From positions 1-15,659 of the forward strand of contig WTCC01000164.1 of assembly GCA_013138755.1 (NCBI GenBank): 15,659 nucleotides of DNA, written 5' to 3'. The stretch comes from Gammaproteobacteria bacterium (GTDB lineage Bacteria; Pseudomonadota; Gammaproteobacteria; SZUA-229). Each line of letters begins with the position of its first letter. The first letter of the stretch is position 1. Under the pieces are notes generated by a model, which searched no databases, was not told the DNA's origin, and was given only the letters and a program-made list of their open reading frames with translations. This document shows, one piece after another, positions 11,127 through 15,657 of this stretch. The translations under genes and the position numbers were made by a program.

Positions 11127-11196
11127 TGGGCCGTCGCGCATGATGGTACAAGCTGGGTAAGTCACCAGATTCTGACTCTGGCATGTGTAGGTTCGA
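11127..11196 (+). pseudogene. Broken tRNA-Gln(CUG)-like 5' part
   Basis: Begins TGGGCCGTCGC like the intact gene at 11507. The anticodon stem is CCAGA/TCTGG with loop TTCTGAC, which would give anticodon CUG (Gln). Then follows GTAGGTTCGA of the T-arm, after which the sequence switches to a palindromic insert. The D-arm is about ten bases too long and does not fold cleanly. The 3' half reappears only as AATCCTGCCG at 11439-11448, without the acceptor strand or CCA. It cannot form a normal tRNA, so I call it a pseudogene. Confidence 0.65.
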
Positions 11197-11438
11197 CAAA
11201 ATTGCCGGGAGCAATTTTGAACGTGCGGAGCACGGCCCGTAGGGCGAAGGACAGGAGTCCGAAGTACAAAATTGTCTGGACACTTACAGGGAAGTAAGTG
11301 GTAGAACGACTCAGGAGACAAAGTCGAACAATTTTGAACATCAGCGACTTTTGCTGATGGCCCGAAGGGCGTAGGGCACGACTATATGGATATAGGAGGT
11401 AGAGCAATGCAGGAGCAATTGCCGAGGAAGCCCGGAGT
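11197..11438 (+). mobile_element. Palindrome-rich insert 1 in a tRNA-Gln T-loop
   Basis: Inserted between GGTTCGA and AATCCTG of a tRNA-Gln-like copy. It is a chain of perfect hairpins. CAAAATTGC/GCAATTTTG has loop CGGGA (11197-11219). CGTGC/GCACG has loop GGA (11222-11234). GCCC/GGGC has loop GTA (11235-11245). GGAC/GTCC has loop AGGA (11249-11260). An outer stem CAAAATTG/CAATTTTG (11267-11336) encloses CACTTAC/GTAAGTG (loop AGGGAA) and CGACT/AGTCG. Then come CATCAGC/GCTGATG (11339-11359), GCCC/GGGC (11360-11370), CTATA/TATAG with loop TGGA (11382-11395) and GCAAT/ATTGC (11404-11422). It has no protein gene. A shorter relative lies at 11661-11739. 'Mobile element' is inference from the two copies at the same tRNA site. 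Confidence 0.5.
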
Positions 11439-11506
11439 AATCCTGCCGAACATGTGTTTGTGTTTAGCTGGAGCTACAGTTTTACAAAAGTTTGAAATTT
11501 TACAAT

Positions 11507-11581
11507 TGGGCCGTCGCCAAGCGGTAAGGCACCAGGTTTTGATCCTGGCATGCGTAGGTTCGAATCCTGCCGGCCCAGCCA
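11507..11581 (+). tRNA. tRNA-Gln (anticodon UUG)
   Basis: A complete 75-base tRNA with encoded CCA. The acceptor stem is TGGGCCG (11507-11513) with CGGCCCA (11571-11577), then discriminator G and CCA. The D-arm is GCC/GGC. The anticodon stem CCAGG/CCTGG has loop TTTTGAT, so the anticodon is TTG at 11539-11541. The T-arm GTAGG/CCTGC has loop TTCGAAT. It sits between ispE and prs, as in Pseudomonas. It is the only intact tRNA-Gln among three related copies here. No clear promoter of its own was seen; it may be read from ispE. Confidence 0.96.
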
Positions 11582-11586
11582 TATTT
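11563..11586 (+). repeat. Direct repeat, copy 1 (tRNA-Gln 3' end plus flank)
   Basis: A 24-base sequence from the T-loop AATCC through CCA to the flanking TATTT, repeated exactly at 11740-11763. A duplicated tRNA 3' end is the usual shape of an integrase attachment core. Confidence 0.7.
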
Positions 11587-11592
11587 GAAAAC

Positions 11593-11617
11593 CTTAACTA
11601 CAACTTGAGTAGTTAAG
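11593..11617 (+). repeat. Hairpin just after tRNA-Gln
   Basis: A perfect 9-bp inverted repeat, CTTAACTAC/GTAGTTAAG, with loop AACTTGA, 12 bases past the tRNA CCA. No T-run follows, so it is not a standard terminator; it may be a 3' processing or stability structure. Confidence 0.6.
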
Positions 11618-11660
11618 TAAAGGTAGTAAGACGGTAGGATGCGAACCGTTATAGGTTCGA
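11618..11660 (+). pseudogene. Degraded tRNA-like 5' part before insert 2
   Basis: Contains GGTAGT (D-arm-like), a stem ACGGT/ACCGT with a 9-base loop AGGATGCGA in the place of an anticodon arm, then TATAGGTTCGA of a T-arm that runs directly into insert 2. The tRNA 3' half resumes at 11740. Too altered to name an amino acid; no acceptor 5' strand matches. Confidence 0.4.
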
Positions 11661-11739
11661 CAAAATTGCCGGGAGCAATTTTGAACACCAGCGTCTTTTG
11701 CTGATGGCCCGTTAGGGCGAAATACACGATGTATTTCGT
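11661..11739 (+). mobile_element. Palindrome-rich insert 2 in a tRNA-Gln T-loop
   Basis: A 79-base relative of insert 1 at the same T-loop position. It has the identical first hairpin CAAAATTGC/GCAATTTTG with loop CGGGA (11661-11683). It then has a CAGC/GCTG hairpin with a TCTTTT loop (one mismatch in its outer stem), GCCC-GTTA-GGGC (11707-11718) and a perfect GAAATACA-CGA-TGTATTTC (11719-11737). It equals insert 1 with the 117 bases between its two CAATTTTGAAC repeats removed, plus a different end. No coding capacity. Confidence 0.5.
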
Positions 11740-11763
11740 AATCCTGCCGGCCCAGCCATATTT
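11740..11763 (+). repeat. Direct repeat, copy 2 (displaced tRNA-Gln 3' end)
   Basis: An exact second copy of 11563-11586, including the acceptor 3' strand CGGCCCA, discriminator G, CCA and five flanking bases. Here it is not attached to a tRNA 5' half and follows insert 2. Confidence 0.7.
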
Positions 11764-15580: not shown

Positions 15581-15657
15581 GGTCATGTAGCTCAGCTGGT
15601 TAGAGCACGGCATTCATAATGCCGGGGTCGGTGGTTCAAGTCCACCCATGACCACCA
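15581..15657 (+). tRNA. tRNA-Met (CAU anticodon, probably elongator)
   Basis: A complete 77-base tRNA with encoded CCA. The acceptor stem is GGTCATG (15581-15587) with CATGACC (15647-15653), discriminator A. The D-arm is AGCTCAGCTGGTTAGAGCA. The anticodon stem CGGCA/TGCCG has loop TTCATAA (anticodon CAT), and the T-arm is GGTGG/CCACC. The first acceptor pair is a normal G-C pair, unlike initiator tRNA. tRNA-Ile2 (lysidine-modified CAU) cannot be fully excluded by eye. Its position after ychF matches the tRNA-Met of Pseudomonas. Confidence 0.93.

What the first reader, a model, noticed from the sequence alone, without database searches (positions are those of the whole stretch)
11197..11739. 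Two related palindromic inserts at the same T-loop position of tRNA-Gln copies
Seen: two tRNA-Gln-like copies are broken at the same place, after GGTTCGA and before AATCCTG, by sequences starting with an identical 9-bp-stem hairpin (loop CGGGA). The 79-base insert equals the 242-base one minus 117 bases lying between two CAATTTTGAAC repeats, and the shared 3' parts align. Neither has a protein gene. Known: the T-arm to CCA end of tRNA genes is a common target for tyrosine recombinases. Inferred: a non-autonomous, structure-rich element family that targets, or was built from, tRNA-Gln. I know of no described element of this form.
Basis: partly seen in the sequence, partly recalled or inferred. 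Interest (0 to 1): 0.75.

Follow-up and report, generated by a model that had tools for sequence, protein, structure and literature searches.

The report
Mobile hairpin RNA beside tRNA genes
The two inserts belong to a widespread family of short, hairpin-rich bacterial sequences that have moved precisely into new sites, often next to tRNA genes, and that may act as RNA binding a regulatory protein.

Summary
The inserts are real, but they are not a 242-base element and its deletion. They are copies of a ~70-80-nt unit, CAAAATYGNCNGGANCRATTTTGAAC-(hairpin 2)-GGCCCGAAGGGC-(hairpin 4, loop CAGGATG)-RGTA. One unit follows the intact tRNA-Gln; two tandem units, the second enlarged by nested repeats, lie in a degenerate tRNA-Gln copy upstream. 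A covariance model finds the unit in 164 of 369 sampled species of the class. Covariation is strong (263 double-change cells against 80.5 shuffled). The unit is mobile: Kosakonia RtT loci give reciprocal occupied and empty sites, and 8 of 13 readable genus members are occupied after tRNA-Gln. Junctions follow (C)GA with no target duplication seen; 29 of 115 to 58 of 159 copies lie in T-loop sequence. RtT RNA (RF00391) is the nearest named family and can host the unit. Hairpins 1 and 4 keep GGA loops, hairpin 4 on 43 different stems, at CsrA-bridging spacing, so I favour a mobile CsrA/RsmA-binding RNA; csrA co-occurrence is weak, and no GGA loss was seen where csrA was not found. The mobiliser is unknown. 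CsrA binding was already proposed in print for TwoAYGGAY.

The parts
11127..11196 (+). degenerate tRNA-Gln-like copy, 5' part (anticodon position reads CTG, by eye), ending in the T-loop sequence GGTTCGA
   Evidence: sequence; not called by ARAGORN or Rfam, nor with flanks joined; degenerate tRNA-Gln copies at this place in six other genus members, there without a unit (by eye)
11197..11266 (+). unit 1: H1 (loop CGGGA), H2 (loop GGA), H3 GGCCC..GGGC, H4 (loop AGGA), end GAAGTA
   Evidence: covariance model R1, 85 bits, E 1.4e-20 (this unit is one of the model's 67 sequences)
11267..11439 (+). unit 2, tandem, enlarged by nested repeats in the H1 and H4 loops, end GGAGTA
   Evidence: anatomy; R1 match 11319-11392, 33.6 bits; repeats D2, D4, D5, I2
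11281..11327 (+). nested hairpin repeat in the H1 loop of unit 2, after TCTGGA; similar repeats occur elsewhere in the genome
   Evidence: 82-91% identical matches on contigs C223, C101, C251, C198, C225
11379..11429 (+). nested hairpins (CTATATGGATATAG and others) in the H4 loop of unit 2
   Evidence: matches to this part on C8, C368, C139, C251, C274 and in relatives
11440..11448 (+). T-arm 3' strand left after the insertion (ATCCTGCCG); the acceptor end is missing
11507..11581 (+). intact tRNA-Gln(TTG)
   Evidence: ARAGORN; Rfam 61.7 bits
11632..11660 (+). partly inverted T-arm copy ending GGTTCGA, predicted to pair with the tRNA 3' end copy (RtT-type context)
   Evidence: fold; sub-threshold RtT match 11618-11758, 22.9 bits, cut-off 45
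11661..11740 (+). unit 3 (single unit); its H4 loop reads CACGATG, without GGA
   Evidence: R1 64.3 bits, E 2.4e-15
11741..11758 (+). duplicated tRNA-Gln 3' end including CCA
   Evidence: repeat D6, 28 nt at 96% identity to the intact gene and its flank

Best explanation
A non-autonomous mobile unit of ~70-80 nt, found across the class, inserts precisely after (C)GA, without target duplication in the junctions read, and is often found in T-loop sequence TTCGA^ATC beside tRNA genes. SHOWN: conserved four-hairpin structure; strand bias of G-U pairs; sharp ends; reciprocal occupied/empty sites; presence/absence in the genus; nesting. INFERRED: it is transcribed with the tRNA (same strand, 48 of 58 T-loop copies with a tRNA upstream), and each unit acts as an RNA with two GGA-loop hairpins that bind one CsrA/RsmA dimer, so units and tandem arrays titrate or tether that regulator. 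The mobilising enzyme acts in trans and is unknown; a single-strand (HUH Y1) transposase would fit the absence of target duplication.
For: Mobility: at the tRNA-Lys RtT locus, Kosakonia L092 and L100 carry a unit at GATTCGA^ with 166 of 180 aligned joined-flank columns identical to the unoccupied E. coli strain compared; L110 carries one 22 bases further on, at GTCGA^, with 170 of 181; each is empty at the other's site (the other 6 of the 9 units compared there align with larger gaps). In the genus, the site after tRNA-Gln is occupied in 8 of 13 readable genomes and empty in 5 (5 of 18 not readable); in G010 a whole unit lies in another's H3, GGCCCGA^unit^ACGGCG. 30 of 42 parsed T-loop copies continue ATC; 72 of 72 other parsed copies are preceded by A, 51 by GA (45 of 159 not parsed). 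Structure: 98.9% of cells paired, 12 pairs with double changes, 263 double-change cells against 80.5 shuffled and 7-60 slid (67 of 101 parsed units used). H3 outer pair G-C 44, G-U 19, A-C 2. GGA: in H4 loops 124 of 139, on 43 different stems, H4 not selected for; H1 56 of 68 when the loop was left free; by contrast H2 5 of 53 and H3 7 of 53 in the same units where H1 has 46 and H4 48 (found with a model trained mostly on GGA units). GGA-GGA spacing 36-52 nt, median 44, inside the 10-63 nt CsrA bridging range, and H4 resembles the SELEX site RUACARGGAUGU (passages of PMC7652899). TwoAYGGAY was proposed as CsrA-binding (passages of PMC4333381).
Against: For CsrA: csrA is in 148 of 164 unit genomes against 165 of 205 others (Fisher p 0.013, confounded by size and kinship, recounted in 83). 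GGA is not significantly lost where csrA was not found (H1 27 of 34 against 46 of 53, p 0.38; H4 28 of 34 against 48 of 53, p 0.33), and G049 (100% complete, no csrA) keeps both. G127 has csrA, yet 7 of 9 H1 loops lack GGA. Window unit 3 lacks GGA in H4; GGA counts in the two inserts are not significant (12, p 0.09; 1, p 0.7). The E. coli RtT copies read have no GGA hairpin in the H1 or H4 place (by eye). A genome-wide census showed no GGA excess. No expression data. In one search the number of further pair types did not exceed shuffles (36 against 33.5, 68 of 500). For mobility: no mobilising gene found.
Confidence: 0.55

Rival explanations
1. The unit is mobile, but the paired GGA hairpins are the recognition signals of its own mobilising enzyme (for example a Y1 transposase or RAYT relative acting on single-stranded DNA); any host RNA function is incidental.
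For: Precise insertion without duplication and hairpins at or near both ends. Y1_Tnp found in 127 of 164 unit genomes against 114 of 205 others (p 1.6e-5, recounted in 83). GGA persists where csrA was not detected.
Against: G-U pairs favour the tRNA strand (G-U 19, A-C 2), pointing to RNA. Unit-rich genomes without a Y1_Tnp match exist (G334 12 copies, G324 10, G155 8). H1 starts at the very first base, leaving no room for an IS200/IS605-type guide (recalled).
Confidence: 0.27
2. An RtT-like stable RNA of tRNA operons, spread by recombination between T-arm sequences shared by all tRNAs rather than by transposition; the hairpins serve processing or RNA stability.
For: GGTTCGAATCC is shared by many tRNAs; inverted tRNA 3' ends in the T-loop class (12 of 41 with an inverted match of 8 or more, re-paired mean 2.1); RtT matches.
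Against: Most copies are outside GTTCGA contexts (101 of 159); nesting in an H3 hairpin and a second RtT insertion point.
Confidence: 0.12
3. A site-specific element integrated by a tyrosine recombinase at tRNA genes.
For: T-arm to CCA is a common attachment region (recalled); the element's 3' side restores a tRNA 3' end.
Against: No duplicated core at the junctions read; no gene in the unit; many sites are not tRNA genes; ~75-nt units nest in one another. Integrases elsewhere in the genomes were not searched for.
Confidence: 0.02
4. A fixed functional RNA of this lineage or a local rearrangement, not mobile.
For: Conserved structure; several relatives share the place after tRNA-Gln.
Against: Present in 164 of 369 species, often in several copies; 5 of 13 readable genus members have an empty site.
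Confidence: 0.03

Closest known systems
RtT RNA (Rfam RF00391; annotated in E. coli beside tRNA-Lys, note 'processed from tyrT transcript')
   Same: Lies downstream of tRNA genes, partly inverted T-arm, GGTTCGA, hairpin GGCCCGAAGGGC, tRNA 3' end with CCA; window 11618-11758 matches below cut-off (22.9 of 45 bits); 6 of 11 chosen relatives match at E 1.6e-4 to 0.044, below cut-off; Kosakonia L092 (57.5 bits) and one place in L100 (49.1) are above it.
   Different: The E. coli RtT read here has no H1 CAAAATYG hairpin (best R1 match in that locus 17.7 bits). RtT is a host of the unit: in Kosakonia the unit is inserted into it at two places.
AaHKsRNA22 (Rfam RF02902, Aggregatibacter sRNA)
   Same: Model begins with an H1-like hairpin ending UUUUGAAC, followed by H2 and a GGCCC-type hairpin (alignment); E 0.0016 to 0.022 in 5 of 7 enterobacterial loci scanned, over the units.
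   Different: All matches are below its cut-off of 39.8 bits; window matches 14.7-22.4 bits; its genomic context was not looked at.
TwoAYGGAY RNA (Rfam RF01731)
   Same: Two hairpins with GGA loops; proposed to bind CsrA (PMC4333381, passages read); two above-threshold places in Klebsiella indica L049, which also carries a unit.
   Different: No TwoAYGGAY match in the window or in the eight loci (seven own-genome contigs) tested.
CsrB/CsrC/RsmX-Z decoy RNAs
   Same: Repeated GGA hairpin loops at bridging distance (PMC7652899 and PMC4333381 passages).
   Different: Those are dedicated genes (recalled); this is a dispersed mobile unit, two sites per unit.
REP/BIME, ERIC, PATE and other non-autonomous palindromic repeats
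   Same: Short, palindromic, dispersed, no gene; mobilised in trans (recalled).
   Different: Four-hairpin unit with fixed ends, strand-biased RNA structure, frequent T-loop sites. No sequence comparison with these families was made.

Membership tests
RtT RNA (RF00391) | score above the curated cut-off of 45 bits | tested here: not met
   window 22.9 bits
RtT RNA (RF00391) | downstream of a tRNA gene, ending in a copy of its 3' end with CCA | tested here: met
   unit 3 context, 11632-11758
RtT RNA (RF00391) | released from the tRNA transcript | not testable with these tools
   no RNA data
CsrA/RsmA decoy RNA | several hairpins with GGA in the loop | tested here: met
   family: H4 124 of 139, H1 56 of 68 with a free loop; but window unit 3 has only one
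CsrA/RsmA decoy RNA | sites 10-63 nt apart (bridging by a dimer) | tested here: met
   36-52 nt in the 66 of 67 aligned units with both; range from PMC7652899 passages
CsrA/RsmA decoy RNA | host has CsrA/RsmA, and sites decay without it | tested here: inconclusive
   148 of 164 have csrA; no significant decay in 16 genomes where csrA was not found, several of them incomplete
CsrA/RsmA decoy RNA | binds CsrA | not testable with these tools
   needs a binding assay
TwoAYGGAY (RF01731) | Rfam match | tested here: not met
   no match in the window or the own-genome loci
IS200/IS605-type non-autonomous element (PATE/REP) | precise insertion without target duplication after a fixed short sequence | tested here: inconclusive
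   precise and without duplication at (C)GA^, but the preceding sequence is short and not strictly fixed
IS200/IS605-type non-autonomous element (PATE/REP) | ends shared with a transposase-bearing copy | not tested
   only genome-level co-occurrence of Y1_Tnp was counted
tyrosine-recombinase element at tRNA | duplicated attachment core | tested here: not met
   no duplication at the junctions read
tyrosine-recombinase element at tRNA | a matching integrase | not tested
   none in the unit itself; not searched for elsewhere

The most novel reading that the evidence does not exclude
A mobile regulatory RNA cassette: a class-wide transposable unit whose payload is a bivalent CsrA/RsmA-binding site, which lands in tRNA operons and so makes CsrA decoy RNA together with tRNA, tying global post-transcriptional control to translation capacity and letting decoy dosage evolve by jumping and tandem duplication.
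Probability: 0.3. Interest if true: 0.87.

Novelty: new variant of a known kind. Interest (0 to 1): 0.68.

Why it matters
It links RtT and AaHKsRNA22, and perhaps TwoAYGGAY, to one mobile unit present in about 44% of sampled species of the class, suggests why tRNA 3' regions such as RtT vary between relatives, and offers a direct test of whether a transposable sequence can carry a regulator-binding RNA as its payload. It may also explain assembly breaks at tRNA T-loops in such genomes.

Tried and rejected
Hairpin-loop targeting as a general rule: flank-joined hairpins at the junction are not clearly enriched (stem of 5 or more: 6 of 61 other sites against a re-paired mean of 3.0, maximum 9; T-loop class 5 of 41 against 1.7, maximum 5). 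Inverted-flank pairing stands out only in the T-loop class (12 of 41 against 1 of 61).

Genome-wide excess of GGA among hairpin loops: none seen in 400 kb each of G005 and G158; the intended control G055 was as high, and it later proved to carry five units, so the control was flawed.

csrA co-occurrence from the strict H1 pattern: 27 of 31 against 286 of 338, uninformative.

Whole-tRNA insertion as the main form: joined flanks make a tRNA in only 3 of 159 copies (L022, L032, L081).

Phages: one Klebsiella unit had no match in 50,697 phage records; 170 plasmid records matched (not followed).

Literature: searches gave nothing on point; one search listed 20 of 96 papers, none on point by title. 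Two searches led to PMC4333381, PMC2864571 and PMC9788540 (passages read); one search listed 20 of 49 papers and led to PMC9577009 (passages; it names AaHKsRNA020, not 22); search 72 led to PMC7652899 (passages); a search for six unit strings found one paper, on a plant (listing only). The library is open-access only, so a description elsewhere is possible. The E. coli tyrT papers on RtT are recalled, not seen.

67 of 101 parsed units went into alignment A1. In one search, 20 of 159 copies were not parsed, 45 of 159. One search scored 13 candidates per genome, so its copy numbers are capped. One search drops duplicates and matches under 55 nt; its csrA-negative set comes from 30 loci and its csrA-positive set from 43, both found with models or patterns rich in GGA. 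Rfam was run on 7, 8 and 11 chosen loci.

Full report
The window (G000:C222, a 2.15-Mb, 368-contig, 73% complete genome) holds an ordinary gammaproteobacterial gene order as I read the translations (prfA, hemA, lolB, ispE, tRNA-Gln, prs, ctc, pth, ychF; names recalled, ORFs, no family search run). Only two tRNA genes are called, Gln(TTG) at 11507-11581 and Met at 15581-15657.

Observation. The two hairpins at 11197 and 11661 are identical and follow the same 9 bases. Read against the family, the long insert is two tandem units with nested repeats in two loops of the second; the short insert is one unit. A covariance model of the family finds 11197-11266 (85 bits), 11661-11740 (64.3 bits) and part of the enlarged unit, 11319-11392 (33.6 bits).

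Family. A search of 58 genomes (the own one and relatives) with 248 bases of the long insert matched 37. Their titles name Gammaproteobacteria, including Klebsiella, Kosakonia, Serratia, Pseudoalteromonas and Rheinheimera, or say only Proteobacteria, except three (Desulfosporosinus L067, Filomicrobium L076, Acidobacteria L130), which may be contamination. With the loop left free, 31 of 369 sampled species of the class matched, 68 places, against one place for the reversed control. The covariance model found 164 of 369 species and 128 of 272 genera at E 0.001 or better; of 16 genomes searched more deeply, the most had 17 copies. The unit is C-AAAATYG-loop-CRATTTTG-AAC, hairpin 2, GGCCC-GAA-GGGC, hairpin 4, RGTA.

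RNA structure. In 67 aligned units (of 101 parsed), 98.9% of cells pair; 12 of 21 pairs show double changes; 263 double-change cells against 80.5 in shuffles and at most 60 when slid; only the number of further pair types does not beat the shuffles (36 against 33.5). Hairpins 2 and 4 have up to six pair types per pair; hairpin 1 hardly varies because it was the search key. The outer pair of hairpin 3 is G-C 44, G-U 19, A-C 2 (71, 23 and 4 in the wider set of 141, where 35 read G-G because four-C variants fall out of register). This favours RNA read on the tRNA strand.

Context. Of 159 copies, 58 have a GTTCGA-like 5' flank; 48 of these have a tRNA on the same strand within 700 bases upstream, against 13 of the 101 others. 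The 101 include 5 with TTCA, which may be variant T-loops, and 13 ending in TA, mostly second units. In the first scan alone, 29 of 115 follow TTCGA. In the T-loop class the 5' flank often holds an inverted copy of the tRNA 3' end (12 of 41 with a match of 8 or more, re-paired mean 2.1 and maximum 9; 1 of 61 in the rest). This is the architecture of RtT RNA, and 6 of 11 chosen tRNA-linked loci score as sub-threshold RtT, as does the window.

Mobility. Three lines agree. First, in the genus the place after tRNA-Gln can be read in 13 of 18 genomes: 8 carry units (G000, G004, G006 with two, G008, G009 with two, G010, G012, G017) and 5 do not (G003, G005, G007, G011, G016); G011 has a unit after prs instead. 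Second, G010 has a whole unit inside hairpin 3 of another. Third, the tRNA-Lys RtT locus: the E. coli strain compared is empty, Kosakonia sacchari L092 and K. quasisacchari L100 are occupied at GATTCGA^, and K. arachidis L110 at a second place, GTCGA^; the joined flanks are 92-94% identical over 180-181 columns, the junctions are exact to within one base, and nothing is duplicated. Each lineage is the other's empty site, so loss in E. coli alone cannot explain it. Six further units compared align less cleanly; in K. oryziphila L148 and L153 the 22 bases between the two places are missing, as if two units had recombined.

Mechanism. GGA is kept in H4 loops in 124 of 139 copies on 43 distinct stems, whereas H2 and H3 loops rarely have it (5 and 7 of 53). 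Two GGA hairpins 36-52 nt apart fit one CsrA dimer: passages of PMC7652899 give RUACARGGAUGU as the SELEX site and 10-63 nt as the bridging distance. Passages of PMC4333381 propose CsrA binding for TwoAYGGAY. Against this, csrA co-occurrence is weak, GGA is not significantly relaxed where csrA was not found, G127 keeps csrA but has mostly lost the H1 GGA, and the window's own unit 3 has one GGA only. I therefore hold mobility and RNA structure as shown, co-transcription as likely, and CsrA binding as the leading but unproven function.

Mobiliser. Unknown. Y1 transposases are commoner in unit genomes (127 of 164 against 114 of 205, p 1.6e-5), but unit-rich genomes without a match exist. No test separates cause from genome size, and other transposase or reverse-transcriptase families were not counted.

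Noticed in passing
window 11127-11196 and L250, L251, L254, L255, L258, L259: A degenerate tRNA-Gln-like copy with an altered anticodon arm lies just upstream of the intact tRNA-Gln in seven genus members (two tandem copies in G017); only the window's copy holds a unit. It may be a tRNA-like leader or a recurrent pseudogene (by eye).
   Followed up: no
L002 (own contig C8), 1-700: A unit lies between csrA and tRNA-Ser after a tRNA-Ser 5' fragment; the contig ends exactly at the T-loop TTCGA of tRNA-Ser, as expected if another unit broke the assembly.
   Followed up: partly
L003-L008 (own genome): A second family of hairpin repeats (GGACGCTTACATGGATGTAAGCG..GACTCAGGAGACAAAGTC and relatives) with many AYGGA-type loops is dispersed in this genome.
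   Followed up: partly
L052 (Serratia marcescens), L119 (S. rubidaea): A unit lies directly after 23S rRNA, between 23S and 5S.
   Followed up: no
plasmid records H7-H21: 170 plasmid records (165 Salmonella; 143 called conjugative) hold a unit 80-95% identical to one from Klebsiella; the 15 rows listed show no annotated feature there.
   Followed up: no
G127: This genome has csrA, but 7 of 9 H1 loops read CCCGGCG-like without GGA: a natural test of what the loop is for.
   Followed up: no
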